Shown here: piece by piece, positions 17,796 to 37,158 of the stretch
How the letters are laid out: each line of letters opens with the position of its first letter
Position numbering within the stretch: position 1 is the first letter of the stretch
Assembly: GCF_036017915.1 (NCBI RefSeq)
Contig: NZ_CP107929.1
Span: 4,654,001 to 4,718,000, forward strand
Reading direction: 5' to 3'
DNA length: 64,000 nt
Origin: Micromonospora sp. NBC_00421
GTDB taxonomy: Bacteria > Actinomycetota > Actinomycetes > Mycobacteriales > Micromonosporaceae
Translations under genes and position numbers: made by a program
The notes under the pieces: generated by a model
Database searches by the model: none
Told to the model about the DNA's origin: nothing
Seen by the model: the letters and a program-made list of their open reading frames with translations, nothing else

Positions 17796-19391
17796 ATGGC
17801 GACCGTCCGGGAGACCACCTACGACCTGCTCCGCGCCCTCGGCCTGACGACGATCTTCGGCAACCCCGGTTCGACCGAGGAGCCGTTCCTGCAGGACTTC
17901 CCGGCCGACTTCCACTACGTGCACGCCCTGCACGAGGCGTCGGCGGTGGCGATGGCCGACGGGTACGCCCAGGCCACCGGCCGACCGGCGCACGTCAACC
18001 TGCACACCGCCCCGGGCACCGGCAACGGCATGGGCAACATCGTCACCGCCTGGCACAACCGGACCCCGCTGATCGTCTCCGCCGGGCAGCAGAGCCGGGA
18101 GATGCTGCTGCTGGAGCCCCGGCTGGCCAGCCGGCGACCGACCGAGCTGCCCCAGCCGTACGTGAAGTGGAGCCACGAGCCGGCGCGGGCGCAGGACGTG
18201 CCGGCGGCCTTCATGCGGGCGTACGCCACGGCGGCGCAACCGCCGACCGGACCGGTCTATCTCTCCCTGCCGCTCGACGACTGGCAGCAGCCGGCGGACC
18301 CGCCGCCACAGGTGCGGACGGTGGCCACCCGGTTCGCCCCCGACCCGCGTCGGCTGCGGGAGTTCGCCGCGGTGCTGGCGGCCGGCCGCAACCCGGTGCT
18401 GGTGCTCGGCGCGGCCGTGGACCGGGCCGCCGCCTGGCCGGTCGCGGTGGCGGTGGCGGAGCGGCTCGCCGCGCCGGTCTGGTCCGCGCCGGCACCGGAG
18501 CGGGCCGCCTTCCCGGAGCACCACCCGCATTACCGGGGGGTGCTGCCGTACGCGATCGCCCCCCTGGCCGAGAAGCTCACCGGGCACGACGTGGTGCTGG
18601 TGGTCGGTGCGCCGGTGTTCCGCTACTACCCGCACGTGCCCGGCGACCACCTGCCGCCCGGGGCCCGGCTGCTGCACGTCACCGACGACCCGGACGAGGC
18701 GGCCCGCGCCCCGGTGGGCGACAGCCTGCTCGGTGACGCCGGGCTGACCCTGGCCGCGCTGCTGGACCTGCTGCCGGCGGCCGACCGGCCCCCGCCCGCG
18801 CCCCGCCCGACACCGCCGCCCCCGGAGCCCGGTGACCCGCCCGGCGCGGACGCGCTCTTCGCCGCGTTGGCCGCCTGCTGGCCCACCGACGGGGTGCTGG
18901 TGCAGGAGTCACCGTCCAACCTGGCGGCGCTGCGTCGCCGGCTCCCGGTGACCCGCCCGGCGTCGTACTTCACCATGGCCAGCGGCGGGCTCGGCTACGG
19001 GCTGCCGGCCGCCGTCGGCATCGCCCTCGCCGAACGGGACACCGGGCGGGGCCGGCCGGTCGTCGCGGTGATCGGGGACGGCTCCTTCCACTACTCGGTG
19101 CAGGCACTGTGGACCGCCGCCCGGCTGCGGTTGCCGGTGGTCGTGCTGGTCCCGGTGAACCAGCAGTACGCCATCCTCAAGGCGTTCGCCGAGCTGAAGT
19201 CCACACCCGGCGTGCCCGGACTGGACCTGCCGGGCCTCGACCTCACCGCCATCGCCCGGGGCTACGGCTGCGCCACCCGCGTCGTCGACACCCCGGCCGA
19301 CCTGGACGACGCCCTGACCGAGGCACTACGCGCGAACCGACCGACCGTACTGGCCGCCCCCATCAGCCCCACCATCCCCAACCTCCTCTAA
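17796..19391 (+). CDS. Benzoylformate-decarboxylase-like ThDP enzyme (one catalytic residue changed)
   Basis: The 531-residue product aligns from end to end with benzoylformate decarboxylase. It keeps S26 (FGNPGSTE), E47 (ALHEAS) and H70 (NLHTAPGTGN) and the ThDP motif GDGSFHYSVQALWTAA. Two things differ from the Pseudomonas putida enzyme as I remember it. The catalytic H281 of APVFRYHQY becomes Y278 here (APVFRYYPH), with a histidine two residues later. The NN of the ThDP motif reads VN (VPVNQQY), keeping the metal-binding second Asn. It may decarboxylate another 2-keto acid. A 147-bp gap separates it from mtnP, and a GC-rich array with a 60-bp palindrome follows the stop. Confidence 0.85.
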   Translation: MATVRETTYDLLRALGLTTIFGNPGSTEEPFLQDFPADFHYVHALHEASAVAMADGYAQATGRPAHVNLHTAPGTGNGMGNIVTAWHNRTPLIVSAGQQSREMLLLEPRLASRRPTELPQPYVKWSHEPARAQDVPAAFMRAYATAAQPPTGPVYLSLPLDDWQQPADPPPQVRTVATRFAPDPRRLREFAAVLAAGRNPVLVLGAAVDRAAAWPVAVAVAERLAAPVWSAPAPERAAFPEHHPHYRGVLPYAIAPLAEKLTGHDVVLVVGAPVFRYYPHVPGDHLPPGARLLHVTDDPDEAARAPVGDSLLGDAGLTLAALLDLLPAADRPPPAPRPTPPPPEPGDPPGADALFAALAACWPTDGVLVQESPSNLAALRRRLPVTRPASYFTMASGGLGYGLPAAVGIALAERDTGRGRPVVAVIGDGSFHYSVQALWTAARLRLPVVVLVPVNQQYAILKAFAELKSTPGVPGLDLPGLDLTAIARGYGCATRVVDTPADLDDALTEALRANRPTVLAAPISPTIPNLL

Positions 19392-19459
19392 CCCCCCACC
19401 CCCCCCCCACCCCACCCCACCCCCACCCTCCCCCTCGCCCCACCCCCCACCCTCGCCCC

Positions 19460-19519
19460 GTTGATCAAGAGGTTTACGTCAAGTTGATCGCCGGGGATGA
19501 CGCAAACCTCTTGATCAAC
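19460..19519. repeat. 60-bp palindromic repeat, copy 1
   Basis: Two 22-bp arms (19460-19481 and 19498-19519) pair at 21 of 22 positions around a 16-nt centre (19482-19497). The arms contain GATCAAGAGGTTT and its complement. It lies between convergent stops (19391 and 19550), just after a C-rich run. By its centre sequence it is in the same orientation as copy 2 and opposite to copies 3 and 4. It could be a bidirectional terminator or a mobile repeat. Confidence 0.9.
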
Positions 19520-19549
19520 AGCGGCATCGGGGTGGGGGCGGCGTTCGCG

Positions 19550-20503
19550 TCAGGGGGTGGTGAGGGTGAGGAGTCGGCCGGTGGCGACGTCGAGGACCGG
19601 GCGCGTGCCGAGGGGGGCCGCCAGTGTCACGGTGACCGGTTTGAGTGCCGCGAGATCTATGCACTCCCCGGTGGCCTGGACCACGCCGCCGCCGACCACC
19701 ACCACGTCGTCGCTCTCCCGCACCAGGGCGGTGGGCCCGCCGTCGCAGGCGCCCAGGGCGACCGTGTACGTCAACCGGGTCCCGTCGACCCGTTGGAGCC
19801 GATCGGCACCGGCCACGCCAGCCGGAAGTGGCCGGGTCGGCGTGGACGGTTCGGGCACGGCGGTGACCGCCCGGGGGGCCACCGCGAGCCGGGCCACCTG
19901 GGTGGTCAACTCGGCCACGGTGAACAACCAGGCCGGCACGACGGCGACCCCCCGGCTGGTGCGTACCTCGGTGGTGCCGAGGACCACGCCGGTGACGGTG
20001 AGCGGGATACAGGGGGTGACGGCCTGGGTGGAGACCGAATCGTCCGGCCTGGCGGCGTCGGTAGAGGTGGGAGCCTGCGGTGCCCGGGGCCGCCCCTCGC
20101 ACGGCTGCGGATCCCCCTGGTCCAGTTCCCGGTACGCCTCGGCTGCGCTGACCAGCGGAACAGTCAGGGCACCGTCCGGGAAGCGGATCGCCGCGTCGGC
20201 GGGCACGGCCGTCGGCAGTGCGATCTGGTCCCGGTACCAGCCGGCGCGGAAGGCCGCCTCGGTCTCGGCGCTGAAGCCGGGATCGCCGACGAGCACCGTG
20301 ACGTCCTGCAGCGGCAGGTAACCGCCCGACCAGTCGGCCCCGGGCCGCCACGCCCCCGCGACCTCGGCGGCCCGCTTGTCGAACTCCTCCCGATGCCACC
20401 CCGGATCACCCCCAGCCACCCCACCCGGCCCAGCCCCGGCTGGCGCACACCCACCCACCCCCACCACCAGAAGGCCCAAGCCCACCAAAACAAGTCGCCG
20501 CAT
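19550..20503 (-). CDS. Secreted lipoprotein of unknown function
   Basis: The precursor is 317 residues from the ATG at 20503. A signal peptide ends in the lipobox VGVGGC, so the protein is lipid-anchored on the outside at C19. The mature part contains strands rich in Thr and Val and paired cysteines (PCEGRP, TPCIPL, GACDGG, GECIDL), but no family that I recognise. A GTG at 20521 would add six residues. The gene is bracketed by copies 1 and 2 of the 60-bp repeat, 30 bp after its stop and 61 bp before its start. Confidence 0.8.
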   Translation of the reverse strand: MRRLVLVGLGLLVVGVGGCAPAGAGPGGVAGGDPGWHREEFDKRAAEVAGAWRPGADWSGGYLPLQDVTVLVGDPGFSAETEAAFRAGWYRDQIALPTAVPADAAIRFPDGALTVPLVSAAEAYRELDQGDPQPCEGRPRAPQAPTSTDAARPDDSVSTQAVTPCIPLTVTGVVLGTTEVRTSRGVAVVPAWLFTVAELTTQVARLAVAPRAVTAVPEPSTPTRPLPAGVAGADRLQRVDGTRLTYTVALGACDGGPTALVRESDDVVVVGGGVVQATGECIDLAALKPVTVTLAAPLGTRPVLDVATGRLLTLTTP

Positions 20504-20564
20504 ACCCCTGAGACGCCCCACCCCCGCCCCCGGTTCCCCACCCGCCCCGCCCTCGCCCCGCCCC

Positions 20565-20624
20565 GTTGATCAAGAGGTTTAAGTCAAGTTGATCGCCCCA
20601 GATGACGCAAACTTCTTGATCAAC
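20565..20624. repeat. 60-bp palindromic repeat, copy 2
   Basis: Arms 20565-20586 and 20603-20624 pair at 19 of 22 positions around a 16-nt centre (20587-20602), AGTTGATCGCCCCAGA, which shares AGTTGATCGC with copy 1. Flanking CCCC and GGGG extend the stem by four pairs. It lies between the start of the lipoprotein gene and the tmRNA terminator, so here it is not between convergent genes. Confidence 0.9.
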
Positions 20625-20752
20625 GGGGCCGGGGCCGGGGCCGGGGCAGGAGCCGGGGCCGGGGCAGGGCAGGGGCAGGGCGGGGCGGGGAGAGACGGGC
20701 GGGGGCGGGGAAGGCCCGGGAGTGCGGGGGCGGGTGGGTCAGGGAGGAATGG

Positions 20753-20788
20753 CGATGCGCCCCGGTCCTTGGGGACCGGGGCGCATCG
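20753..20788 (-). terminator. tmRNA terminator hairpin
   Basis: A perfect 16-bp stem (20753-20768 with 20773-20788; CGATGCGCCCCGGTCC and its complement) closes a TTGG tetraloop 3 bp beyond the tmRNA 3' end. It would end the ssrA transcript. Confidence 0.85.
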
Positions 20789-20790
20789 TG

Positions 20791-21166
20791 TGGTGGAGGT
20801 GCCGGGAATCGAACCCGGGTCCTTCGCCGGTTTGTCAGGGCTTCTCCGAGCGCAGCTCGCTATGCCTCTACTCGGCCCCACCGCTCACGCGAGCAAGTTG
20901 GTGTGACGGGCCCAGTCGCTGATTGATCTCGCCGCACGGACCCCGCGACCGGGTCCGGTTGGCCAGCCTCCTAACTGATGCCGGCTATTGGGACGAAGGC
21001 GTTCCCAGGCCGACAGACTCAGCTACTCGCCTCAGGCGGCGAGAGCGAAGTCAGCGCGATTTTGCTTGGCGCTTATAGTTTTCCGACGACCGATTCTCGA
21101 GACGACGTCGGCTTCCTCGGCTCGCTTCCCCTGTCGCTGCGTACGAAGTCGAAACCAGTCACCCCC
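20791..21166 (-). ncRNA. ssrA: tmRNA (transfer-messenger RNA)
   Basis: The tRNA-like ends are clear: 5' GGGGGTG (21166-21160) pairs with 3' CACCTCC, the T arm is CCGGG-TTCGATT-CCCGG, and the CCA end (20793-20791) is encoded. The tag open frame reads AKQNRADFALAA followed by TGA (21070-21032); FALAA is the expected degradation signal. tmRNA with SmpB frees stalled ribosomes and marks the nascent chain for proteolysis. It lies 104 bp downstream of smpB on the same strand. 376 nt is a normal length. Confidence 0.97.
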
Positions 21167-21197
21167 TCGACGGGCCGCCGATGTGGCGGCACTGACA

Positions 21198-21225
21198 AGA
21201 CTAACGCCTACCGCAACGGGTTTCA
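21198..21225 (-). promoter_or_regulatory. Candidate ssrA promoter
   Basis: On the minus strand TGAAAC (21225-21220) and TAGTCT (21203-21198) lie 16 bp apart, upstream of the mature tmRNA 5' end, which RNase P would produce. It is a weak match to sigma-70, offered because smpB and ssrA are 104 bp apart. Confidence 0.45.
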
Positions 21226-21270
21226 TCCCGAGCCCCGGGTCGGCGCGTCCAGCCCGACAAACGGGACGAA

Positions 21271-21750
21271 TCAGTCGTCCATTCCCTTGCCCCGCCGGCC
21301 CGAGACCCGGGCGATCTCCCGGTCGGCGTCCCGCTTGGCGAGGTCCTGCCGCTTGTCGTACGACTTCTTGCCCTTGGCCAGGGCGATCTCCACCTTGGCC
21401 CAGCCGTCGGAGAAGTAGACCTGCAACGGGACCATGGTCAGGCCGCCCTCGCGGGTCTTGCCGACCAGCTTGTCGATCTCCAGCCGCTTCAGCAGCAGCT
21501 TGCGGGTACGCCGGGGCTCGTGGTTGGTCCAGGTGCCCTGGGTGTACTCCGGGATGTGCATGCCGTGCAGGAACAGCTCGCCGTCGCGCTCCTGGGCGAA
21601 GGCGTCGACAAGCGAGGCCCGCCCCGCCCGCAGCGACTTCACCTCGGTGCCGGTCAACGCCATGCCCGCCTCGTACGTGTCGAGGATGGCGTAGTCGTGG
21701 CGGGCCTTCCTGTTGGAGGCGACCACCTTGCGGCCCTTTTCCCGTGGCAT
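21271..21750 (-). CDS. smpB: SsrA-binding protein SmpB
   Basis: The 159-residue product is a typical Smp[35 protein letters not shown] at the N-terminus, an OB-fold core ([16 protein letters not shown]) and a basic C-terminal tail ([23 protein letters not shown]). SmpB brings tmRNA to stalled ribosomes. The ATG at 21750 sits after GAAGGGGG. Longer in-frame starts have no family support. It is followed by its RNA partner, ssrA. Upstream is ftsX, with a terminator hairpin between them. Confidence 0.97.
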
Positions 21751-21822
21751 CGGCGCACCCCCTTCCTGGTCCGCGCACCGGCCGTCCGGCCGGCGAGCGG
21801 GGATCATGCTACCCGAACGACA

Positions 21823-21864
21823 AGGACCCTTCCGCGCCGTTTGTTCCCGGCGCGGAAGGGTCCT
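21823..21864 (-). terminator. Terminator between ftsX and smpB
   Basis: A perfect 17-bp stem (21823-21839 with 21848-21864; left arm AGGACCCTTCCGCGCCG) encloses an 8-nt loop TTTGTTCC. It lies 22 bp after the ftsX stop and so separates the ftsEX transcript from smpB. Confidence 0.85.
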
Positions 21865-21885
21865 CACGGAACACCCCTGCGGTGA

Positions 21886-22761
21886 CTAGACCCGCAGGTA
21901 GAAGCGGAGCGTGACCCAGGCGGTGGCGGCGCTGATCAGACCACCGACGCCGGCCATCAGCGGGAACATCAGGAAGATGTCCGACCACTGGATCGGCGAG
22001 AGCAGCCCCTCGAGCGCCTTCAACGAGCCGCTGAACAGCAACTGCTTCGCACCGATCAGCGCGACCAGGCCCAGCAACGAGCCGATCAGGCCGGCGACCA
22101 CCGCCTCCAGCACGAACGGCGCCTGGATGAACCAGTTCGACGCGCCGACCAGCTTCATGACCGCGACCTCACGCCGCTTGCTGTAGGCGGCCACCTGGAT
22201 GGTGTTCGCCACCAGCAGCAGCGCGGCGATGGCCATCACCACCGCGGCGGCCAGCGCGATGTTCTGGATCGCGGTGAGCACGTTGAAGATCTTGTCGAGC
22301 AGCCGGCTCTGGTCGACGATCACGTCGACCCCCTCGGTGCCCTGGTACTGGTCGTAGATGTTCTTGTACTGCTCCGGGTTGACCAGCTTCAGCCGGAACG
22401 ACTCGGGCAGCAGGTCCGGCTTCACGGCGTTCACCAGGTCGGGCGCGTCCTGGTACATCTCCTTGAAGGTCTTGTACGCCTCGTCCTTGTTGACGTAGAG
22501 GACCTCCTTGACCAGGGGATCGCCCTTCAACTTGGCGTCGAGGTCGGTGCGCTGCTGCTCGGTGACGTCGGTCTTCAGGAAGATCGAGACTTCGACGTTC
22601 TTGTAGTAGAGATCCTTCATGTCGCCGACCTGTTTGTACATCAGGCCACTGGCGCCGAGCATGGTCAGCGAGACCGCCATCGTGATGATCATCGCGACGG
22701 TCATGGTGACGTTGCGCCACAGTCCGACCAGTACCTCGGACAGGACGTACTTCATCCGCAT
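21886..22761 (-). CDS. ftsX: Cell-division membrane protein FtsX
   Basis: The 291-residue product has four membrane segments: one near the N-terminus (about 18-42), then after a large outside domain (about 45-165) three more (about 168-192, 220-245 and 262-288). This is the FtsX layout. Together with the ATPase FtsE it forms an ABC-type complex that activates cell-wall hydrolases at the septum. An ATG at 22761 is preceded by GGAGG at 8 nt. It is 70 bp downstream of ftsE. Homologues in actinobacteria partner with RipC-like hydrolases; no such gene is visible here. Confidence 0.97.
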   Translation of the reverse strand: MRMKYVLSEVLVGLWRNVTMTVAMIITMAVSLTMLGASGLMYKQVGDMKDLYYKNVEVSIFLKTDVTEQQRTDLDAKLKGDPLVKEVLYVNKDEAYKTFKEMYQDAPDLVNAVKPDLLPESFRLKLVNPEQYKNIYDQYQGTEGVDVIVDQSRLLDKIFNVLTAIQNIALAAAVVMAIAALLLVANTIQVAAYSKRREVAVMKLVGASNWFIQAPFVLEAVVAGLIGSLLGLVALIGAKQLLFSGSLKALEGLLSPIQWSDIFLMFPLMAGVGGLISAATAWVTLRFYLRV

Positions 22762-22831
22762 CGGGTGTTCCTCCGGCTCTCCGGCGTGAGGTGTTCGTCG
22801 TCAGGTCGTACGGCAGGGGTGGAGCGCCGGC

Positions 22832-23512
22832 TCACCCGTAGACGCCGCGGGCCTGGTCGCGCACGATCCGGCCGCTCTCGATCTCGACGACCCGGCGGCG
22901 CATCTGGTTGACGATGTTGGAGTCGTGCGTGACCATCACGACGGTCGTGCCGGTGCGGTTGATCCGGTCCAGCAGGCGCATGATCTCGATCGAGGTGTCC
23001 GGGTCCAGGTTTCCGGTCGGCTCGTCGGCCAGCAGGATCAGTGGACGGTTCACGAACGCCCGCGCGACCGCGACCCGCTGCTGCTCACCACCGGAGAGCT
23101 CGTGCGGGTAGCGGTGCTCCTTGCCACCGAGACCGACCAACTCCAGCACCTCGGGCACGACCCGGCGGGCCACCGCCTTGGTCTTGCCGATCACCTCCAG
23201 GGCGAACGCCACGTTCTCGTAGGCGGTGCGGTTCGGCAGCAGCCGGAAGTCCTGGAAGACACAGCCGATGGAACGCCGGAAGTGGGGTCGCTTCCAGGAA
23301 CGCATCGAGGTGACGTCCTTGCCGTTGACGACGACCCGGCCCTTGTTGGGGGCGACCTCGTGCAGCAGCATTTTGATGATCGTGGACTTCCCGGAGCCCG
23401 ATGGCCCGATGAAGAAGACGAACTCGCCCTTCTCGATCGAGACGGACACGTTGTCGAGCGAAGGCCGGGACGCCTTCGGGTACGTCTTCGTCACTTGCTC
23501 AAGCTGAATCAC
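22832..23512 (-). CDS. ftsE: Cell-division ATP-binding protein FtsE
   Basis: The 226-residue ATPase has Walker A GPSGSGKS (residues 36-43), Q-loop in [10 protein letters not shown], signature LSGGEQQ and Walker B LILLADEP followed by the H-loop in VTHD. It powers FtsX. The GTG at 23512 ([13 protein letters not shown]) is the usual FtsE start; the frame remains open farther upstream but without family match. prfB lies 119 bp upstream on the same strand. Confidence 0.97.
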
Positions 23513-23630
23513 GGGTCGTGAGTCTACGCGGTGTAACCGCAGAGCCAAGTGCCACGCCCCGCCGATGCGAGGCGCGTCGTCGATTCACCCGGTCAACCCG
23601 GCATCGATGACGCGCCCCGTCCACGATCGA

Positions 23631-24752
23631 TCACGCAGCGTCGTTGGCGAGCTGCTGCTGTTTGCGCCAGCGGATACCGGCTTCGATGAAGCTGTCCAGC
23701 TCGCCGTCGAAGACCGAGGACGGATTGCCGGTCTCCTGCTCGGTTCGCAGATCCTTCACCATCTGATAAGGGTGCAGCACGTACGAGCGCATCTGGTCGC
23801 CCCAGGAGCTGGTGCTCCCGGTCTTCAGACCGGCCAGCTTCGCCTCCTCCTCCTGCCGCTTGCGCTCCAGCAGCCGGGACTGGAGCACCCGCATCGCGGA
23901 GGCCTTGTTCTGGAGCTGGGACTTCTCGTTCTGGCAGGTCACCACGATGCCGGTGGGGATGTGGGTGAGTCGCACCGCCGAGTCGGTGGTGTTGACGCTC
24001 TGCCCACCCGGGCCGGACGACCGGTAGACGTCCACCCGTACCTCGTTCTCCGGGATGTCGATGTGGTCGGTCTGCTCGGTGACCGGCAGCACCTCGACCC
24101 CGGCGAAACTGGTCTGCCGACGGCCCTGGTTGTCGAACGGGCTGATCCGGACCAGCCGGTGGGTGCCCGACTCGACGCTGAGCGTGCCGTAGGCGTACGG
24201 GACCTTCACGGTGAAGGTGGCGGACTTGAGGCCGGCCTCCTCGGCGTACGAGGTCTCGTAGACCTCCGTCGGGTAGCCGTGCCGCTCGGCCCAGCGCAGG
24301 TACATCCGCAGCAGCATCTCGGCGAAGTCGGCGGCGTCCACCCCGCCCGCGCCCGCCCGGATGGCGACAAGCGCCTCCCGGGAGTCGTACTCGCCGGAGA
24401 GCAGGGTGCGGACCTCCATCTCCTGGATGGCCCGGGTCAGCCCGGCGATCTCCGACTCGACCTCGCCGAGCACCCCGGAGTCTGCCTCGTCCTCGGCCAG
24501 CTCCAGCAGCACCCGGGCGTCGTCCAGCCCGGACCGCAGGCTGCCCAGCTTGCTGATCTCGCCGTTGACGTACGACAGCTGCGAGGTCACCTGCTGTGCC
24601 CGGGCCTGGTCGTCCCAGAGATCCGGCGCGGACGCCTGCTCCTCCAGCCGGGCCTTCTCCTCCCGCAGGCGGTCGAGGTCGAGCACCGACTCGATGTTGC
24701 GCAGGGTCGCGTCGAGTTCCTTGAGTTGTTCGGCGTAATCGGCAGCGGTCAC
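23631..24752 (-). CDS. prfB: Peptide chain release factor 2
   Basis: The 373-residue product carries the RF2 peptide anticodon SPF (204-206) and the catalytic GGQ (249-251, SGPGGQSVN), which triggers release at UGA and UAA. A coiled-coil region (about 10-110) precedes. I place the start at the GTG at 24752 ([13 protein letters not shown]). The frame is continuous, so there is no programmed +1 frameshift in this gene. prfB upstream of ftsEX is a conserved actinobacterial order. Confidence 0.97.
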
Positions 24753-24816
24753 GACAGACAAGGGTACTGTGCGTGCGGCGGTCCGCTCACTGCACACCAC
24801 CTACCAGGGCGGATGA

Positions 24817-25332
24817 TCAGCCGACCGGGGCGGTCTTGAGCCAGGACAGCGCGGCCTTGTGGTAGGCGACGGCGAACTCCAGCGCGCTGGCGTCGTACTC
24901 GTCGCCCTCCTTCTTGGCGGTCTTGACCTGCTCCCGGACGTACGCGAGGGCCTCGGTGTGGTATTCGTTGGCCGAGGTGTAGAGGTTCTTGAGCTGACTG
25001 GCCGAGTGCAGGTTGCCGAACGCGATCCGCAGGGCGATCGGGTTGCGGATGGTGTCCCGGCCGGGGTTCTCCGCCAGCCAGCGGGAGAAGGTCCGCTTCC
25101 CGGACGCGGTTATCGCGTAGGGTTGGCTCATCCGCGGCCCGGGCTTGCCCAGCCGCACGAAACCACGCTCCGCCAGCACCGGCAACTCACGGTAGACCTG
25201 ACTGCGTGTCATAGACCAGTACGGCGCCAGTCGGCGCTCAGCGGCGGCCATCAGCTGGCCGCCTGTCATCGGGCCCTCATGCAACAACCCCAGCAGGGCC
25301 GCCGCAGTGGGGTTGACTCCGGAATCCGCCAT
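24817..25332 (-). CDS. PadR-family transcriptional regulator
   Basis: The 171-residue product has an N-terminal winged helix (about 8-85), with LLGLLHEGPMTGGQLMAAAERRLAPYWSMTRSQVYRELPVLAERGFVR characteristic of PadR, and a C-terminal helical dimerisation part. The ATG at 25332 follows AGAGGG. It lies 65 bp upstream of prfB. The ligand and targets are unknown. Candidate operator repeats lie in its promoter region. Confidence 0.92.
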   Translation of the reverse strand: MADSGVNPTAAALLGLLHEGPMTGGQLMAAAERRLAPYWSMTRSQVYRELPVLAERGFVRLGKPGPRMSQPYAITASGKRTFSRWLAENPGRDTIRNPIALRIAFGNLHSASQLKNLYTSANEYHTEALAYVREQVKTAKKEGDEYDASALEFAVAYHKAALSWLKTAPVG

Positions 25333-25367
25333 GCCCTCTAAGCTGCCACTTTGCGGTCCCGGCGTCC

Positions 25368-25429
25368 AGGATTTCCGGATTTGCCACCCGGGAGGATTTC
25401 CAATGTGCACTGTCGGCCGGCGACAGTGC
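25368..25429 (-). promoter_or_regulatory. Candidate operator region upstream of the PadR gene
   Basis: Two direct copies of AGGATTTCC (25368-25376 and 25393-25401) lie 25 bp apart in the 178-bp gap between the PadR gene and the end of the P5C dehydrogenase gene. A perfect 9-bp inverted repeat GCACTGTCG/CGACAGTGC (25407-25415, 25421-25429) lies next to them. These could be PadR autoregulatory sites or a terminator for pruA. Neither is proven. Confidence 0.3.
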
Positions 25430-25510
25430 TCCCAGGACCACCGTCGGTCACCCCGCGCGGCGGCGTGGCCGGCGGTGACCTGGGGCGCGGCACCGCCGGC
25501 CGACGCCGGT

Positions 25511-27139
<1,629 letters not shown>

Positions 27140-27525
27140 CACAGGCTCCTGGGCGATCTCGACAGCGGCGGCGAAATCGGCCCCGCAGGCGTCGACCGGA
27201 CGGCCGGACGCCGGACGCCACGCGGCGTACCTGGCGCGGCGGCGGGACCTGGCGACGATTCTCCCACGCCCATCCCGGTCGACTCACGCCCCGCCCGGCC
27301 TGCGCCGTGGATAGCGAGGCACAATCGCCCATCCGGCGACGATTCCCTTCGGAACGCGTCGGTGGGCCGACGAAAAGCAGGGTCGCCGGTTCGGGCGGCC
27401 GAGGCCGACCGGGCCGGTCGGGAGCGCCCACGCCCAGCCCGGGTCGACCCGGCCCGCCCGCGTACGCTGGTTGGCGAGAAGGGCCCGTCCCGGTGCCGGG
27501 GTGGCGCGGTGTCGAGAGGGAGACG
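27140..27525. other. Divergent intergenic region, 386 bp, no gene seen
   Basis: This region lies between the starts of pruA and the membrane protein at 27526. It must carry promoters for both. I see no convincing sigma-70 pair, riboswitch or repeat, and the open frames across it have no ribosome site or family match. Confidence 0.5.
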
Positions 27526-28509
27526 ATGAGCAACCAGCCCGGCAGTTCGACGGCCGCGTCCATCGACCCGCCGACCGACGAGCCGGCCGGGCGGACGGGC
27601 TACGCCCCCGGCACGCCGGTGCTGGCGCTGCTGGCGGTCGGCTGGCTGGCCGCGATGCTGTGGTCCACCCGGGAGGCGATCCACTCGGCGGCGGTCGGCC
27701 TCACCGCGATCACCCTCTCCGCCTTCGCCCTGCCCGGGGTGATCTCCGCCGCACTGGTCGCCGGTGCGGCCGTCGCGCTGGCCGCGAGCGAGCTGACCGC
27801 CCGCCGGCTCGGCGACCGCGCCTCGCTGCGCTTCGCGGCGGCGATCGGCGCCGGCATGCTGCTCGGGCTGGGCACCGCCCTGGCCATCAACCTGACGTAC
27901 GCCGACAACGCCACCACCAACACCATCGCCGGCACCAGCGCGGCGGCGGCAATCATCGGTGGGGCGCTCGCCGGAGCCCGTACCCCGGGACCGGTCGGCG
28001 CGGCGGTCACCGCCGCGCTCGGCACCCTGCTCTTCGTGGTGCTCTTCAGCCAGGCCCGCGACCCGCTGTTCGACCTGTTCGGCGCCGACGACTCCCAGGC
28101 GTCGCTGGTCGGGGCGGCGAAGTGGGTCTCCCGCACCGAGTCGCTGCTCGCCGGGCTGCTCGCCGGGCTGCTCGCCTTCGGCTACCTCACCTGGGCCCGC
28201 CGCCGGGCGATCCGGCACGCCCCCGACGCCCCGGCCCCGCGCTGGCCCGCCTACCTGGTCGCCGGGGGCGGCCCCGGCCTGCTCCTGCTGCTCACCGAGG
28301 TGATCATCCGGGTCGGCGGCCGGACCCTGCTGGACCTGGCCGGCGCGTTGAGCGAGGCGGACGCGGTGGCCCAGACCAGCATGGGCACCTCGCGGGTCGA
28401 CAACGGCATCTGGGTGCTCTTCGTCGGCGCACTGACCGCGGTCGTCCTCTTCGGCCGCACCCTCGGCCCGACCCCCCGCGACGACGACCCAGAGCCCGCC
28501 GAGGACTGA
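27526..28509 (+). CDS. Integral membrane protein of unknown family
   Basis: The 327-residue product has about eight hydrophobic helices spread along its length, a short Pro/Ser-rich cytoplasmic N-terminus and an acidic C-terminal tail (RDDDPEPAED). No motif that I recognise. The ATG at 27526 lies downstream of GAGAGGGAGA. It is divergent from pruA and convergent with the DUF6912 gene. Confidence 0.8.
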   Translation: MSNQPGSSTAASIDPPTDEPAGRTGYAPGTPVLALLAVGWLAAMLWSTREAIHSAAVGLTAITLSAFALPGVISAALVAGAAVALAASELTARRLGDRASLRFAAAIGAGMLLGLGTALAINLTYADNATTNTIAGTSAAAAIIGGALAGARTPGPVGAAVTAALGTLLFVVLFSQARDPLFDLFGADDSQASLVGAAKWVSRTESLLAGLLAGLLAFGYLTWARRRAIRHAPDAPAPRWPAYLVAGGGPGLLLLLTEVIIRVGGRTLLDLAGALSEADAVAQTSMGTSRVDNGIWVLFVGALTAVVLFGRTLGPTPRDDDPEPAED

Positions 28510-28590
28510 TCCCGGCCGTCACCCGGCGTCCCACCGCCGCCAGGCACCACTCCCGTCCCGCCGGCCGGCGGGCCCGCTTCGGCGGGAGGG

Positions 28591-29103
28591 TCAGGAGGCG
28601 GTGCGGAGCAGCAGTTCCCACTCGGAGGGGGCGTACCACTCCAACTCGTGGTCCTCGGCCCCGTCGACGGTGAACTGGGCGTCCGGGTCACCGTCGAGCG
28701 CCTCGACCACCACGTCGACGGCGGCGGCCACGTCCTCGACCGCGTCGGTCCCGTCCACGTGCAAGGCGGCCACCGCCGACGCCGGCACCGGCCCGTCGAG
28801 CTCCACCACGCTGGAGCCCAGCTCGCCGTCGCCCCGACCGACGGCGGTCGCGGGCAGGTCCACCGAGACGACCACCCGACGGCGGGGCGCGGCCGAATCC
28901 TCCCGCAGCAGTTGCAGGGCGTCCTGGGCGGCCCGGGTGAAGGCGACGTACTCCAGCTCCTCCTCGTCGCCCTCGGCGTACCACTCCCGCAGCATGGGGG
29001 TGACCGCGTGCCCGCCGCTGGCCGGCAGTCCCCGCTCGCGCAGCAGGGCCAGCATCGGCACGGTCGCCGGCACGTACACCCGGACCAACTCGTCGCCCAC
29101 CAT
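28591..29103 (-). CDS. DUF6912 family protein
   Basis: The 170-residue acidic product begins [19 protein letters not shown], the hallmark of this actinobacterial family, followed by [16 protein letters not shown] and VVVSVDLPA. The family has no assigned function. The start is the ATG at 29103; upstream the 425-bp gap contains a 14-bp tandem array. It is convergent with the membrane protein. Confidence 0.8.
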
Positions 29104-29354
29104 CGTCTCCCCTGTCCGTTACGGTCCCACCCGGCCGTGCTCGCCGGGCCTCTCGACCCGGGCCCACGCCGGCTCGTGACGGCCCTCGCCGTCCGGGAGG
29201 GACCATGGAAACCCCGAAGGCCGATCATGCCGTACGCCGAGACCGTCATACACCGCGCACCGCCCCGGGGGAAGCCGCCGCACCGACGGACGACACCACC
29301 CTGCGCCCGGGGGACCGCTCCACACGGACGGGCACCGACGGCCGGGGCCGGTCG

Positions 29355-29424
29355 GGTCAGAGCCGCTCGGTCAGAGCCGGTCCGAACCGGTGGGTCGGTC
29401 GGAGCCGGTCGGTCAGAGCCGGTC
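29355..29424. repeat. 14-bp tandem array, five units
   Basis: Five consecutive 14-bp units occupy 29355-29424. Units 1, 2 and 5 read GGTCAGAGCCGSTC, unit 4 GGTCGGAGCCGGTC, and unit 3 is diverged. The array lies in the 425-bp gap (29104-29528) between the divergent DUF6912 gene and the small HTH gene, about 105 bp before the HTH gene start. Nothing else in that gap is recognisable. Spacing of 14 bp is not a helical turn multiple; an operator role is unproven. Confidence 0.75.
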
Positions 29425-29528
29425 GGTCGTGGACCTGACAGTGAGGGCTGGCCGGCAGGGTCCGGTGCTGGGCGGGGAAGGCAGTCGGTGGCAAACTGAG
29501 CCCAACGACGCCAAGCCGAGGGGTTTCC

Positions 29529-29756
29529 GTGGAGCCGAGGTTTCTCCTGCTCTCCGACGTGGCCGCCGAGCTGAACGTGTCGGACTCGCAGGTCTACCAC
29601 ATGGTACGCAGCGGCGAGCTGCCCGCCATCAAGATCGGCGGACGGGGTCAGTGGCGGGTCGAGCGCGCCCGGCTGGAGGAGTACATCCAGCTCAAGTACG
29701 CCGAGACTGCCGAGTGGGTACGCGGCAACCCGCTCACCGACCGCGACCCGGAGTGA
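29529..29756 (+). CDS. Excisionase/MerR-type helix-turn-helix protein
   Basis: The 75-residue product is almost entirely one winged helix-turn-helix: LLLSDVAAELNVSDSQVYHMVRSGELPAIKIGGRGQWRVERARLEEYIQ. It matches the small BldC/excisionase-like regulators of actinobacteria. GAGGGG lies 6 nt before the GTG start. No integrase is adjacent, so a chromosomal regulatory role is more likely than excision. The upstream 14-bp array may be its own operator. Confidence 0.85.
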   Translation: MEPRFLLLSDVAAELNVSDSQVYHMVRSGELPAIKIGGRGQWRVERARLEEYIQLKYAETAEWVRGNPLTDRDPE

Positions 29757-29858
29757 TCACGCCAACCCGCTGAGCCATTGACCCCGCGCGTTGCCATGCC
29801 CGACAATCGACGCTGTCGGAAGCAAACGTAGGCAAACGTAGAGAACGAGGGGGCAGCG

Positions 29859-30440
29859 ATGGCCGACTCCCGCCGTCCGGGGCCGACCCGACCGCCGATC
29901 CGGTTGCGCCCCGCCCCCGTCGCCGATCCGCCCTACGTCGACGAGGTGCCTGATCTGTGGCCCCGGCCAGCCGGCCAACTCGCCCTCGACCTGTTCGGTA
30001 CGGGACAACCGCCCGTCGGCCGCCCGGCCAGCAGGCGACCCGACCCCCGGCCCCGCCCCGGGCATCCGGCCGCCCCGCCACCGCCACCGCCCGCCACCGC
30101 CACTCCCGAGGCGACCCGCGCGGCCCACCGGTTCGTCGGCACCTGCCTGGAGATCCTCAACGGCTACCGGCCCCCCGGCCAGATCCGGGCCCTGGTCGAG
30201 CCGGGCTCCACCGTCGAGGTGACCGAACAACTCGCCCGCGCCGCCTCCCGCACGCCGCCGGTGCGTCGGCGCTCCACCCGGCCCGCCGTACACCTACGCC
30301 GGCTGCGGGTGTGTGAGCCACGAGCCGCAGCGGTCGAGGTGGCCGCCGTGGTCACCGCCGGCGGTCGCACCTGGGCAATGGCGCTCCGCCTGGAACACCG
30401 CCGGGGCCGCTGGCTCTGCACCACCCTCCAGGTCATCTGA
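29859..30440 (+). CDS. Rv3235 family protein
   Basis: The 193-residue product has a Pro/Arg-rich N-terminus (1-85) and a conserved C-terminal part (ATRAAHRFVGTCLEILNGYRPPGQIRALVEP, then VCEPRAAAVEVAAVVTAGGRTWAMALRLEHRRGRWLCTTLQVI) that I recognise from Rv3235-like proteins next to secA in actinobacteria. Its function is unknown, but the linkage to secA (convergent, 268 bp away) is retained here. The ATG at 29859 follows GAGGGGGCAGCG. Confidence 0.85.
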   Translation: MADSRRPGPTRPPIRLRPAPVADPPYVDEVPDLWPRPAGQLALDLFGTGQPPVGRPASRRPDPRPRPGHPAAPPPPPPATATPEATRAAHRFVGTCLEILNGYRPPGQIRALVEPGSTVEVTEQLARAASRTPPVRRRSTRPAVHLRRLRVCEPRAAAVEVAAVVTAGGRTWAMALRLEHRRGRWLCTTLQVI

Positions 30441-30529
30441 CCCCGCCCCCCACCCCGCCCCGCGCCCCGCCGCCCCGCGCCCCGCCGCCCCGCCCCGCGC
30501 CGCGCCGCGCCGCGCCGCGCCGGCGGAGT

Positions 30530-30589
30530 GTTGATCAAGAGGTTTAGGTCATCCCCGGAGATCGAACTGACGCAAACTTCTTGATCACC
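30530..30589. repeat. 60-bp palindromic repeat, copy 3
   Basis: Arms 30530-30551 and 30568-30589 pair at 18 of 22 positions around a 16-nt centre TCCCCGGAGATCGAAC. It lies between the convergent Rv3235-family and secA genes, directly after a run of CCGCG repeats. Its centre matches the reverse complement of that of copy 1 at 12 of 16 positions, so it is inverted relative to copies 1 and 2. Confidence 0.9.
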
Positions 30590-30660
30590 GCGGAAGGCGG
30601 CACACGGGGGTGGCAGGACGGGGGTGGCAGGACGGGGCAAGCGTCACGACAGGAACGGCA

Positions 30661-30698
30661 GGACGCCCGCCCGCTAGGCAGCGCGGGCGGGCGTCCTT
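30661..30698. terminator. secA terminator hairpin
   Basis: A perfect 15-bp stem (30661-30675 with 30684-30698; left arm AGGACGCCCGCCCGC) encloses an 8-nt loop, 11 bp beyond the secA stop. A T-run (CCTTTC) follows on the plus side, so it may also stop transcription from Rv3235. Confidence 0.8.
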
Positions 30699-30708
30699 TC
30701 GGTGCGGA

Positions 30709-33636
<2,928 letters not shown>

Positions 33637-33796
33637 GGATCAACGCTCCCCTAGACAGTCTCGAACCATCGTAGGCGCTCCGTCGGCGCGATGGTCACTG
33701 GTGGCGGCGGTCCGGCCCGACTAAACCGACATAACACTCGGCTCGGCCCGCCACCGGCGGTTATCCGGTTACGCCTACCGCGAACGATCCGGCACG

Positions 33797-34975
33797 ATGA
33801 CTCGGATGGAGCCTGTGGAGATCATCGAGGGCGGCATGCTGCTGCGTCCGTGGCTCGCCGCGGACGCCGACGACGTACACCGGGCTTGCCAGGACCCGGA
33901 CATCCAGCGCTGGACCACCGTACCGCGTCCGTACCGGCCTGAACACGCCCACGGATTCGTCACCGAGATCGCTCCCCGGGCCTGGGCCGACGGCACCGGC
34001 GCGCCGTTCGCGGTCTGCGACGCGGCCACCGGCGAGCTGCTCGGCTCCTGCGGCCTGGTCTCGATCGACCGCGCCCTCGACTCCGCCGAGATCGGCTACT
34101 GGACCGCCCCCTGGGCCCGCGGCCGGGGGGTCACCGTCCGGGCCGTCCGGGCGGTCGCCCGCTGGGCCTTCGGGGCGCTGGCGCTACGCCGACTCGTCTG
34201 GCAGGCCGAGGTCGGCAACCACTTCTCCCGGCTGGTCGCGCTGCGGGCCGGCTTCCAGGTCTCCGGCGAACTGCGGCTCGCCCACCCCGTCGAGGGCGGT
34301 CGGGCCGAGGGCTGGATCGGCTCGCTACTGCCCGGCGAGGTGCCGGCCGGCCAGGTGCCGGCCGGCGGTGCACCCGGTCCGGCCGGGCCGGGCACCCTGG
34401 ACGCCCGCCGGGCCGCCGTGTTCGGCCGACCGCAACCCGTCCTGTTCGCCACCACCGGCGGCACCGAGCTGCGGCTGCGGCCGATGGAGGAACGGGACCT
34501 GGACGGGGTGGTCGCCACCTGCCGGGACGCCGAGACCGTCCGGTGGACCAGCGTGCCGCACACATACCAGCGCACCGATGCGGAGGACTACCTGGGCTAC
34601 GGCGGGCTGTCCTGGGCGCGGGGCAGCAGCGCGTGCTTCGTGCTGGCCGACCCGGACGACGCCTACGCCGGCACCGTCGACCTGCGGTTGAGCCCCACCG
34701 ATCCGCTGCTGGCCGAGGTCGGTTTCATGACCGCGCCGCACGCACGGGGGCGGGGCTGGATGCCGGCCGCGCTCGGCGCGCTCGCCGCCTGGGGTGTCAC
34801 CAGCCTGGGCCTGGCCCGGGTCGAGTGGAAGGCCCACGTCGGCAACACCGCCTCCCGCCGGGTCGCCGAGAAGGCCGGTTTCACCGTCGAGGGCACGCTG
34901 CGGGGCGGGGTGTCGCAGCGGGGGAACCGGATCGACGCCTGGGTCGGCGCGCTGCTCGCCGAGGACCTGACGTGA
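33797..34975 (+). CDS. Double-GNAT acetyltransferase (first of a coupled pair)
   Basis: The 392-residue product has two RimJ/RimL-like GNAT domains, about 8-175 and 215-390. Each has the acyl-CoA strand and loop: EIGYWTAPWARGRGVTVRA and EVGFMTAPHARGRGWMPAA, and a closing RLVWQAEVGNHFSRLVALRAGF-type helix (…RVEWKAHVGNTASRRVAEKAGF). GNAT enzymes transfer acetyl from acetyl-CoA to an amine; the substrate is unknown. A Pro/Gly linker separates the domains. The ATG at 33797 or 33806 is possible. The stop overlaps the next start by 4 nt. Confidence 0.88.
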   Translation: MTRMEPVEIIEGGMLLRPWLAADADDVHRACQDPDIQRWTTVPRPYRPEHAHGFVTEIAPRAWADGTGAPFAVCDAATGELLGSCGLVSIDRALDSAEIGYWTAPWARGRGVTVRAVRAVARWAFGALALRRLVWQAEVGNHFSRLVALRAGFQVSGELRLAHPVEGGRAEGWIGSLLPGEVPAGQVPAGGAPGPAGPGTLDARRAAVFGRPQPVLFATTGGTELRLRPMEERDLDGVVATCRDAETVRWTSVPHTYQRTDAEDYLGYGGLSWARGSSACFVLADPDDAYAGTVDLRLSPTDPLLAEVGFMTAPHARGRGWMPAALGALAAWGVTSLGLARVEWKAHVGNTASRRVAEKAGFTVEGTLRGGVSQRGNRIDAWVGALLAEDLT

Positions 34976-36084
34976 CGCCGGAGATCATCGAGGCCGGCCG
35001 GCTGCGGCTGCGGCCGTACCGCCTGACCGACACCGACGACCTCGCCGCCGGGTGTGCCGATCCGGTGAACCTGCGGTTCAACCCGACGATGCCGAAGCCG
35101 TACACCCTGGCCGACGCCCACCGGTGGATCACCGAGGGCGCCCCGGCGGCCTGGCGGAGCGGCGGCGTCGCGTACGCGATCGTCGACGCCGGCACCGACC
35201 GGCTCGTCGGCGGTGCCGGGCTCGGCCACCTCGCGCCCGGCCGGGGTCAGGCGGAGCTGGGCTACTGGGTGGCACCCTGGGCGCGGCGGCGCGGGATCGC
35301 CACCGCGGCCACCCGGGCGCTGGCGACCGCCGCGTTCCGGGCCGGCCTGACCCGGCTGGAGCTGCTCGTCCACGCCGAGAACCCGGTCAGCCAGCGGGTC
35401 GCGCTGGCCGCCGGTTTCCACCCCGAGGGGGTACGCCGGTCCGCCGGCCAGGACCGCGACGGCAGCCGGCACGACCTGCTCGCCTGGGTACGCCTCGCCG
35501 GCGACCCACCCGGCCCGGCCCCGCGCCCGCTGCCGGATCTACCCGACGGCCGGCTCACCGACGGGGTGGTGACGTTGCGGCGGCTCTCACCTGCGGACGC
35601 CGAGCCGCTGTACCGGCTGTACACCCGCCCCGAGGTGGTGGCGACCCGGGTCCGTCAGGCCCCACCGACCCGGGCAGACATCGCCCGACGTTGCGCCGTC
35701 GCCGAGAGCGAATGGCTGACCGGCCGGTCGGCCGACTTCGCGCTGCTCGACGCGGTGACCGGCGCGATGGTCGGCGGCTGCGCCCTGATCTACGACGAAC
35801 CGGCCACCGGCCAGGCGATGATCGGCTACAGCCTGTTGCCCGAGGCGCGCGGCCGGGGTCTGGCCACCCGGGCCGTCCGGCTGCTCTCCGGCTGGGCGTT
35901 CGGCCCGGTCGGCCTGGCCCGCCTCTGGGCCGGCAACGCCCCCTGGGACACCGCCTCCCAGCGGGTCCTGCAACGGGCCGGCTTCCACCAGGAGGGCCTG
36001 ATGCGCGCCCGCCTCCCCGCCCAGGGCACCACCCCCCGCCCCGACACGGTCCTCTGGTCCCTCCTCCCCACCGACCCCCAATAA
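34972..36084 (+). CDS. Double-GNAT acetyltransferase (second of a coupled pair)
   Basis: The 370-residue product again has two GNAT domains, about 1-170 and 185-370. Acyl-CoA loops are ELGYWVAPWARRRGIATAA and MIGYSLLPEARGRGLATRA. The domain start IEAGRLRLRPYRLTDTDDL resembles the first domain of the upstream protein, suggesting a duplication. The GTG at 34972 overlaps the preceding stop (GTGA), so the two are translated together. Four GNAT domains in a row are thus made from one message. A 60-bp palindrome follows the stop. Confidence 0.88.
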   Translation: MTPEIIEAGRLRLRPYRLTDTDDLAAGCADPVNLRFNPTMPKPYTLADAHRWITEGAPAAWRSGGVAYAIVDAGTDRLVGGAGLGHLAPGRGQAELGYWVAPWARRRGIATAATRALATAAFRAGLTRLELLVHAENPVSQRVALAAGFHPEGVRRSAGQDRDGSRHDLLAWVRLAGDPPGPAPRPLPDLPDGRLTDGVVTLRRLSPADAEPLYRLYTRPEVVATRVRQAPPTRADIARRCAVAESEWLTGRSADFALLDAVTGAMVGGCALIYDEPATGQAMIGYSLLPEARGRGLATRAVRLLSGWAFGPVGLARLWAGNAPWDTASQRVLQRAGFHQEGLMRARLPAQGTTPRPDTVLWSLLPTDPQ

Positions 36085-36156
36085 CCCCGCTCCCCCACCC
36101 CGCTCCCCCCACCACCCCACCCACCCCGCCCACCCGCGCCCACCCCCGCCCACCCC

Positions 36157-36216
36157 GGTGATCAAGAGGTTTGCGTCATTCTTGAAGATCGAATTGACGC
36201 AAACCTCTTGATCAAC
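36157..36216. repeat. 60-bp palindromic repeat, copy 4
   Basis: Arms 36157-36178 and 36195-36216 pair at 21 of 22 positions around a 16-nt centre TTCTTGAAGATCGAAT. It lies between the convergent GNAT and HPF genes (stops at 36084 and 36282), after a C-rich run. Same orientation as copy 3 by its centre (both contain GATCGAA). Confidence 0.9.
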
Positions 36217-36281
36217 ACGGCGGGGGCGCGGGTGTGGCCGGCGCGGGAGGGGCGGGGGGCGGGGGGCGGAGGGCGGGAGGG

Positions 36282-36908
36282 TCAGGTGTCGAGGGAGATG
36301 ATGCCGTAGTCGTAGGCGTGGCGGCGGTAGACGACGCTGGGGCGGCCGGACTCCTTGTCGTGGAACAGGTAGAAGTCGTGGCCGACGAGCTCCATCTGGA
36401 ACAGGGCGTCGTCGACCGTCATCGGGTCGGCGGGGTGCACCTTGGCCCGGGCGATGTGCCAGGGCTGGTCGTCGTGCTCCTCCGGGCGCTCCTCGACGGC
36501 GGTCGCGGTGGCCGTGCCGGTGGCGGCGACGGCGACGTCGTCCAGGCCGGCCACCGGCAGACCGGCGGTGGCGGCGGCGACGGAGATCGGCGCGTGCCGG
36601 CCCCGGTGTACGCGGCGGCGGTCGGCCGCCCGGCGCAGTCGGGTGTCCAGCTTGGCGATGGCCGCGTCCAGCGCGCTGTAGAAGTCGTTGGTGCAGGCCT
36701 CGGCCCTGATCACCGGCCCCCGGGAGACACAGGTGATCTCCACTCGCTGGCAGGTGTCGGACTGCCGGGGATTGCGTTCGTGGAACAACTCCACATCGAC
36801 CCGGATGAGCTTGTGATCGTAGCGCTCGATCTTCGCGAGTTTCTCCGCTACGTGTACCCGGTAATGGTCCGGCACTTCGACGTTTCGACCCTTGACCACG
36901 ATGTCCAC
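36282..36908 (-). CDS. hpf: Long-form ribosome hibernation-promoting factor
   Basis: The 208-residue product has an N-terminal HPF/RaiA domain (about 1-105, VDIVVKGRNVEVPDHYRVHVAEKLAKIERYDHKL) and a C-terminal dimerisation domain (about 150-208, MTVDDALFQMELVGHDFYLFHDKESGRPSVVYRRHAYDYGII), joined by a Ala/Thr-rich linker. Long-form HPF pairs 70S ribosomes into inactive 100S dimers in slow growth. The GTG at 36908 is chosen because AGGGAGGT lies just upstream. The 250-bp gap upstream (36909-37158) contains no gene; its sequence is less G+C-rich and could carry a stress promoter. Confidence 0.95.
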   Translation of the reverse strand: MDIVVKGRNVEVPDHYRVHVAEKLAKIERYDHKLIRVDVELFHERNPRQSDTCQRVEITCVSRGPVIRAEACTNDFYSALDAAIAKLDTRLRRAADRRRVHRGRHAPISVAAATAGLPVAGLDDVAVAATGTATATAVEERPEEHDDQPWHIARAKVHPADPMTVDDALFQMELVGHDFYLFHDKESGRPSVVYRRHAYDYGIISLDT

Positions 36909-37158
36909 GTGACCTCCCTTTTCCGGATGGTCGGCTGATCTACGAATCCGGTCGAGCACCCTCGGGAGGGCCCCTGGGAGCGTCGACCGGTCAGGTACGG
37001 CTACGCCTCCTTCCACCGTCGGGGGCGGGTGGGAAACCCTTCCTACCCCGACACGAAAACGCTAACTCCTGTTCGCCCGACAGTCACCCCCGGTTGTGGG
37101 AAACCCTCAGAGAATTAACAGCAACCAACACCATGGGGTGAAACGGAAACACGAAGCG

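What the first reader, a model, noticed from the sequence alone, without database searches (positions are those of the whole stretch)
19460..36216. Family of four 60-bp palindromes with fixed 22-16-22 geometry
Seen directly: copies at 19460-19519, 20565-20624, 30530-30589 and 36157-36216 are each exactly 60 bp, with 22-bp arms (18-21 of 22 paired) and a 16-nt centre. The centre is conserved too, allowing an orientation: copies 1 and 2 one way, 3 and 4 the other (12 of 16 match after reversal). All contain GATCAAGAGGTTT on the left and TGACGCAAAC on the right. All sit in C-rich low-complexity DNA at gene ends; three lie between convergent genes. Fixed length and centre go beyond what a generic terminator needs, so a mobile (MITE/REP-like) or protein- or RNA-binding element is possible. 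Term-seq-like function as bidirectional terminator is the simplest model.
Basis: partly seen in the sequence, partly recalled or inferred. Interest (0 to 1): 0.7.

Follow-up and report, generated by a model that had tools for sequence, protein, structure and literature searches.

The report
Helically phased palindromes at gene ends
A soil bacterium and most of its relatives sampled carry many copies of a 60-letter DNA palindrome just past the ends of genes, and their strict geometry and turn-of-the-helix spacing suggest that an unknown protein sits on them, possibly to stop transcription from both sides.

Summary
The four window copies belong to a family of at least 96 in this 7.23-Mb Micromonospora-type chromosome, found in 41 of 44 congeners. 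Two ~20-bp half-sites face each other across 16 or 17 bp; the spacer drifts in sequence, not length. Arms of one copy resemble each other barely more than arms of different copies, so pairing is not what selection mainly keeps. Neighbouring copies lie mostly about 83, 93 or 104 bp apart (period 10.45 bp). This points to a DNA-binding protein. Copies sit about 75 bp past stops, are rare in divergent gaps, and lie between a C-rich left and G-rich right flank that element-free gaps lack on average. Their gaps hold fewer ordinary hairpins. Of 29 mapped sister-species sites 26 are shared, arms kept, spacer and flanks replaced. No Y1/RAYT transposase was found in this genome. Best model: a two-way terminator in which a bound protein blocks polymerase and Rho loads on C-rich RNA. 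Protein, binding and termination are inferred. The open-access searches I made listed no description.

The parts
19460..19519 (.). element copy 1 (arm 22, centre 16, arm 22), between convergent genes
   Evidence: present at the orthologous place in G011
20565..20624 (.). element copy 2, co-directional, downstream of ssrA and upstream of the next minus-strand gene
   Evidence: kept in M. matsumotoense, M. wenchangensis and M. antibiotica loci
30530..30589 (.). element copy 3, between convergent genes
36157..36216 (.). element copy 4, between convergent genes
19392..19459 (.). C-rich left flank of copy 1, from the stop of the plus-strand ORF 17796-19391
   Evidence: sequence, ORF; group statistic
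20625..20730 (.). G-rich right flank of copy 2
   Evidence: sequence; group statistic
30441..30529 (.). C-rich left flank of copy 3, after the plus-strand ORF 29859-30440
   Evidence: sequence, ORF; my gene caller missed this ORF (one search gives 776 bp to the left gene)
36085..36156 (.). C-rich left flank of copy 4, after the plus-strand ORF ending at 36084
   Evidence: sequence, ORF
36217..36281 (.). G-rich right flank of copy 4, up to the minus-strand ORF 36282-37016
   Evidence: sequence, ORF

Best explanation
Each copy is a pair of inverted half-sites for an unidentified sequence-specific DNA-binding protein, held 16 or 17 bp apart, placed about 75 bp past stop codons between a C-rich left and a G-rich right flank, so that RNA made from either side is C-rich and G-poor before it reaches the palindrome. 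Shown by computation: the geometry, the near-absence of arm covariation, helical phasing of neighbours, 3'-end location, the C-to-G flank switch, fewer other hairpins in the same gaps, and retention of arms and spacer length at orthologous places. Inferred: that a protein binds, that it blocks RNA polymerase from both sides, and that Rho loaded on the ribosome-free C-rich RNA releases the stalled polymerase, giving a two-way roadblock-type terminator.
For: Spacer 16 in 83 and 17 in 7 of 93 arm pairs when 0-80 was allowed. Arm differences 1.77 of 20 within a copy, 1.91 between copies; covariation equal to shuffles; no G-U over A-C preference, 33 to 27. 71 neighbouring pairs, period 10.45 bp, 0 of 5000 random sets as strong; 0 of 5000 after reduction to 28 linker clusters. 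35 convergent, 35 co-directional, 2 divergent gaps against 15.6, 36.9, 19.5 expected. Stop-to-element RNA 61-64% C, 18-20% G against 38% C, 36% G after 270 control stops. Hairpins in 10 of 35 convergent gaps with, 70 of 105 without an element. 26 of 29 mapped sister sites shared. Rho prefers C-rich, G-poor, ribosome-free RNA of 70-80 nt or more (PMC6407284, passages) and can terminate polymerase stalled at roadblocks in vitro (PMC4132739, passages).
Against: No protein was identified and no binding or transcript data were seen. Arms do correlate at positions 0 and 16 and in G363 (p 0.007). Across species both arms of a copy change type together (rows), which pairing would predict as well as a dimer does. 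Most G000 copies are single, 58 of 90. G000 pairs at 130 and 142 bp do not fit the phase and lay outside the tested linker range. Co-directional copies carry the G-rich side too, where no facing gene needs an end. ssrA already has its own hairpin before copy 2 and copy 3 lies near another hairpin. Part of the hairpin deficit follows from the skewed composition (shuffled 0.35 against 1.77 per kb). A few congeners have none or few copies (G005, G185, G208; G012, G014).
Confidence: 0.4

Rival explanations
1. Ordinary two-way hairpin terminators: the RNA stem of 20-27 bp stops polymerase or protects the 3' end, and arms are alike by descent.
For: 3'-end place and convergent excess; other hairpins fewer in the same gaps; arms change type together across species; some correlation at positions 0 and 16.
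Against: Loop of fixed length 16 or 17; no covariation beyond shuffles; no G-U preference on the sense strand; G-rich, not T-rich, DNA follows; phased neighbours.
Confidence: 0.25
2. REP- or MITE-like mobile palindromes that survive mainly where they do least harm, at gene ends, with no function of their own in the host.
For: Copy number, 3'-end bias and doublets as in REPs (abstract and section 14 of PMC3733652); some linkers alike at different loci; patchy presence outside the genus; array copy number changes between sisters.
Against: No Y1_Tnp in G000; 26 of 29 mapped sites kept in the sister while the flanks were replaced; helical phasing; flank skew; no clean empty site seen.
Confidence: 0.2
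3. Chromosome-architecture or supercoiling sites, like gyrase-bound BIME arrays, placed where transcription piles up supercoils.
For: Phased arrays and convergent excess; BIME-2 arrays bind gyrase (passage of PMC2817692).
Against: 58 of 90 copies are single; as many co-directional as convergent gaps; fewer other hairpins point to termination.
Confidence: 0.15

Closest known systems
REP elements and BIMEs
   Same: Many dispersed extragenic palindromes, mainly downstream of genes, often in doublets (PMC3733652 abstract and section 14; PMC2817692 passages)
   Different: 60 bp instead of 20-40, no GTAG or CGTC tag at an end, no Y1/RAYT gene found in G000, rigid 16/17 spacer and doublets at whole helical turns
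Two-way intrinsic terminators
   Same: Palindrome at 3' ends, often between convergent genes
   Different: Long loop of fixed length, no T-run after it, arms do not covary beyond shuffles, phased arrays
Rho-dependent terminators
   Different: Mirror-image tracts on both sides of one conserved palindrome; Rho dependence not shown
Protein-roadblock terminators (for example TTF-I Sal boxes, Reb1; recalled, not looked up)
   Same: A bound protein would stop polymerase; arrays of sites
   Different: Bacterial, inverted half-sites with fixed spacer, protein unknown

Membership tests
REP (RAYT type) | Y1/RAYT transposase in the genome | tested here: not met
   PF01797: no match in G000; 1 of 16 genomes (G013) has it
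REP (RAYT type) | 20-40 bp palindrome with an unpaired GTAG or CGTC tag at one end | tested here: not met
   60 bp, ends GTTGATC or GGTGATC (rows); definition from the abstract of PMC3733652
REP (RAYT type) | Extragenic, mostly downstream of genes | tested here: met
MITE | Target-site duplication and clean empty sites | tested here: inconclusive
   G011 against G000: flanks too diverged, no clean empty site in 8 alignments
MITE | Parent transposon with the same ends | not tested
   genes between some close copies were translated and read by eye only
Intrinsic terminator | GC-rich stem, short loop, T-run | tested here: not met
   loop 16 or 17; G-rich DNA follows
Intrinsic terminator | Stem kept by compensatory change | tested here: not met
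   within one genome no excess over shuffles, 1.77 against 1.91; G363 is an exception and types differ in both arms between species
Rho-dependent terminator | C-rich, G-poor ribosome-free RNA of 70-80 nt or more before the end | tested here: met
   median 74 and 79 nt, 61-64% C, 18-20% G
Rho-dependent terminator | Transcript end depends on Rho | not testable with these tools
   no RNA data
Protein-roadblock terminator | A bound protein that stops polymerase | not testable with these tools
   only indirect: phasing and half-site geometry

The most novel reading that the evidence does not exclude
A bacterial class of two-way terminator that works as a protein roadblock: an unknown protein on a rigid pair of half-sites, stacked in arrays on one face of the helix, with C-rich tracts on both sides that feed Rho, used by a whole genus in place of hairpins at a set of gene ends.
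Probability: 0.3. Interest if true: 0.8.

Novelty: new variant of a known kind. Interest (0 to 1): 0.6.

Why it matters
How high-GC actinomycetes end transcripts without T-runs is, as far as I recall, not settled. If right, this gives a defined, testable class of sites at dozens of gene ends per genome in a genus that makes antibiotics, bait to fish out the protein, and a case where DNA geometry rather than RNA pairing marks a transcript end. If it is only a mobile palindrome, it is an unusually rigid and phased one, without the transposase usual for such repeats.

Tried and rejected
RAYT-driven REP: rejected as a family label. RNA stem as the main selected trait: not supported within genomes, though arms change type together between species. 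Centre conserved as a sequence: rejected in general, kept for a subset. Parent transposon: genes around some close copies were translated and look like housekeeping or unknown genes by eye; they were not scanned against Pfam. Clean empty site: looked for in 8 G011-G000 alignments, none found. Position along the chromosome: spread by eye, not tested. Rfam: only tmRNA and tRNA in the window. Papers: the listings show nothing that describes these repeats (one search returned none); (Streptomyces terminators) was not followed up; only open-access text is held. Seen of the cited papers: PMC3733652 abstract, section 14 and passages; PMC2817692, PMC6407284 and PMC4132739 passages only.

Limits. First searches required or were trained on a 16-nt centre and the fetched DNA was chosen around such copies; the half-arm scan and the variable-gap patterns relax this only in part. 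The shared core TGATCAWG..GTT of the arm types was imposed by the pattern. Model searches scored at most 150 or 82 candidates a genome, so counts are lower bounds; the two copies seen near 1920949 and 5653112 are outside the fetched DNA. Genes were called with my own codon script, which missed the ORF before copy 3. The phasing test saw linkers of 20-50 bp only; G000 pairs at 130, 134 and 142 bp are outside it. The 32 G011 loci were the best-matching sites plus 13 that I picked from the list, so sharing may be overstated; the 27 pairs include array members matched by position. In one search I used 12 of 13, 9 of 13, 12 of 13 and 12 of 13 listed elements of G020, G032, G034 and G363 (other arm types left out) and 46 of G011. 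Of the 54 rows two are repeats (L191=L049, L309=L046) and two come from G011. One search was wasted by a pattern one base short; one search is the corrected search.
Full report
OBSERVATION. The window is 4654001-4718000 of a single 7,231,838-bp contig. The nearest named relatives by SmpB (99% in the best segment) are M. wenchangensis, M. antibiotica and M. matsumotoense; the genome itself may be left out of that list.

A GENOME-WIDE FAMILY. The arm-N16-arm pattern gives 84 forward and 85 reverse matches with up to 3 mismatches and none for the reversed control. In 1,358,265 fetched bases, chosen around known copies, a half-arm scan finds 96 elements, 88 with spacer 16 and 8 with 17 (spacers of 12-22 allowed). 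A scan allowing 0-80 in 1,211,768 bases gave 93 arm pairs: 83 at 16, 7 at 17, 2 at 38 (a duplicated arm in both) and 1 weak pair at 2.

DISTRIBUTION. A generalised variable-gap pattern hits 41 of 44 congeners and 2 of 254 other genomes in an order-wide sample. In a family-wide sample of 150 it hits 15 of 16 congeners and 5 of 134 others, patchily within genera: one of six g53 genomes, two of three g32 genomes. Several arm types exist, sometimes in one genome: TGATCAAGAGGTTTGCGTCA mostly with 16, TGATCATGAAGTTGGCGGC, TGATCATGAAGTTATTGCC and TGATCAAGGAGTTTGTGTCC mostly with 17 (rows; the pattern itself fixed the outer core).

PAIRING IS NOT THE MAIN CONSTRAINT. If pairing mattered most, the arms of one copy should resemble each other more than arms of different copies. 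They hardly do: 1.77 against 1.91 differences in 20 (90 elements). At arm position 15, where A and G are both common, identical pairs number 40 with 40.5 expected. Positions 0 and 16 do show correlation. A separate count gives covariation 0.036 against 0.035 in shuffles (22 sequences). On the sense strand of co-directional gaps G-U mismatches (33) are not clearly preferred over A-C (27). Of five further genomes four are negative (p 0.59, 0.76, 0.60, 0.12) and G363 is positive (p 0.007). Against this reading, both arms of a copy are of one type when species differ, which pairing would also produce.

HELICAL PHASING. In 11 of 61 genomes of the genus 71 neighbouring pairs with linkers of 20-50 bp were found. 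65 of 71 linkers are 26-28, 35-39 or 46-49 bp, i.e. spacings near 83, 93 and 104 bp. The best period is 10.45 bp (R 0.81, 0 of 5000 uniform draws). Without G000 and G011, 43 pairs give R 0.71 at 10.6. The 20 pairs of five species with other arm types give 2 of 5000 (best period 9.85). With linkers reduced to 28 similarity clusters it is 0 of 5000 (best 10.05). Some pairs join different arm types. Pairs at 130 and 142 bp in G000, outside the tested range, do not fit. Phasing by whole turns is expected for proteins meeting on one face of the DNA.

PLACE AND SETTING. Of 72 intergenic gaps with elements 35 are convergent, 35 co-directional, 2 divergent; 15.6, 36.9 and 19.5 were expected by length (p 2e-9). 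In co-directional gaps the upstream stop is the closer end in 29 of 35. From stop to element lie a median 74 nt (69 convergent sides; 64% C, 18% G) or 79 nt (32 co-directional; 61% C, 20% G), against 38% C and 36% G in 75 nt after 270 control stops. The skew rises towards the element and flips at it over roughly 120 nt each way, in convergent and co-directional gaps alike. Element-free convergent gaps of 100 bp or more show none on average (0.06 and -0.03, 78 gaps). In loci of relatives 52 of 54 rows show a C-rich left and G-rich right flank, and 31 of 41 in G011; the weakest rows are the few from outside the genus, but g32 rows (L205, L206) are strong. A compact hairpin outside the element occurs in 10 of 35 convergent gaps with and 70 of 105 without an element (p 1e-4), and in 5 of 35 against 104 of 331 co-directional ones (p 0.03). 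Composition explains part: shuffled sequence gives 0.35 against 1.77 per kb in convergent gaps.

EVOLUTION. In the sister genome G011 all four window sites carry an element and the finder saw no others in its 70 kb, while it found none in the compared stretches of G020, G018, G010 and G021. Of 32 G011 loci examined 29 map to fetched G000 DNA, and by my reading 26 of these share the element; L271, L279 and L293 do not. In the alignments shown arms are kept while centre and flanks are largely replaced. Arrays change number between the sisters (1 against 3 at L277, 3 against 2 at L278, 3 against 1 at L303) while the 83-bp step recurs. In 27 orthologous pairs the centre is recognisable (10 or more of 16) in 18, 12 in the same and 6 in inverted orientation; random pairs reach this in 14%. 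At the smpB-ssrA locus 5 of 80 named loci hold a detectable element, some contigs being cut short.

MECHANISM. The simplest account of rigid spacing, independent arms and phased neighbours is a sequence-specific DNA-binding protein. The place, the mirror-image flanks and the shortage of other hairpins suggest that transcripts end there from both sides. Rho binds ribosome-free C-rich, G-poor RNA of at least 70-80 nt (PMC6407284, passages), about the stretch seen here, and can terminate polymerase stalled at roadblocks in vitro (PMC4132739, passages). Binding, blocking and Rho action are inferred. Against: co-directional copies carry the G-rich side too, ssrA has its own conserved hairpin before copy 2, copy 3 lies near another hairpin, and the flanks could grow by slippage.

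COMPARISON AND NOVELTY. REPs and BIMEs resemble it in place, number and pairing but differ in size, end tag, transposase and spacing. Intrinsic terminators differ in loop, T-run and covariation. The listings show no paper on these repeats. I file it as a new variant of dispersed extragenic palindromes, with a bolder reading as a roadblock-type terminator.

Noticed in passing
L267, L268, L265, L280, L281 (G011) against G000 3993788, 4690159, 2415475, 4277973, 4673462, 4674567: The 16-nt centre is in inverted orientation between orthologous copies in 6 of 18 recognisable pairs, either by flipping or by replacement from another copy.
   Followed up: partly
window 20754-20787, minus strand: ssrA (20791-21166, minus) is followed by its own compact hairpin, present in all 7 sequences aligned; the element lies about 130 bp further on.
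   Followed up: yes
window 30661-30696: A compact hairpin with a short T-run beside copy 3; a similar hairpin stands in the G011 and M. wenchangensis sequences.
   Followed up: partly
G000 1604598, 4153864, 4846030, 5369045: Four copies have one arm with GAAA-type letters in place of GGTTT (rows), leaving an internal mismatch in only one arm.
   Followed up: no
G000 6794737 and 6797097: Two copies 2.36 kb apart share the same 17-nt centre and about 20 bp of left flank, a likely recent duplication; no transposase seen by eye between them.
   Followed up: partly
L169 11082 and L122 6963: M. mirobrigensis and M. endolithica have elements of another arm type downstream of smpB near the place of window copy 2, perhaps separate gains at one site.
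   Followed up: no
window 5370-5540: Five copies in register at 27-bp steps, G+C-rich, perhaps inside a coding region.
   Followed up: no
G013 (L240-L247): The only one of 16 genomes with Y1_Tnp matches, 8 of them, several cut by contig ends; this genome has few elements of this family (8 model matches).
   Followed up: no
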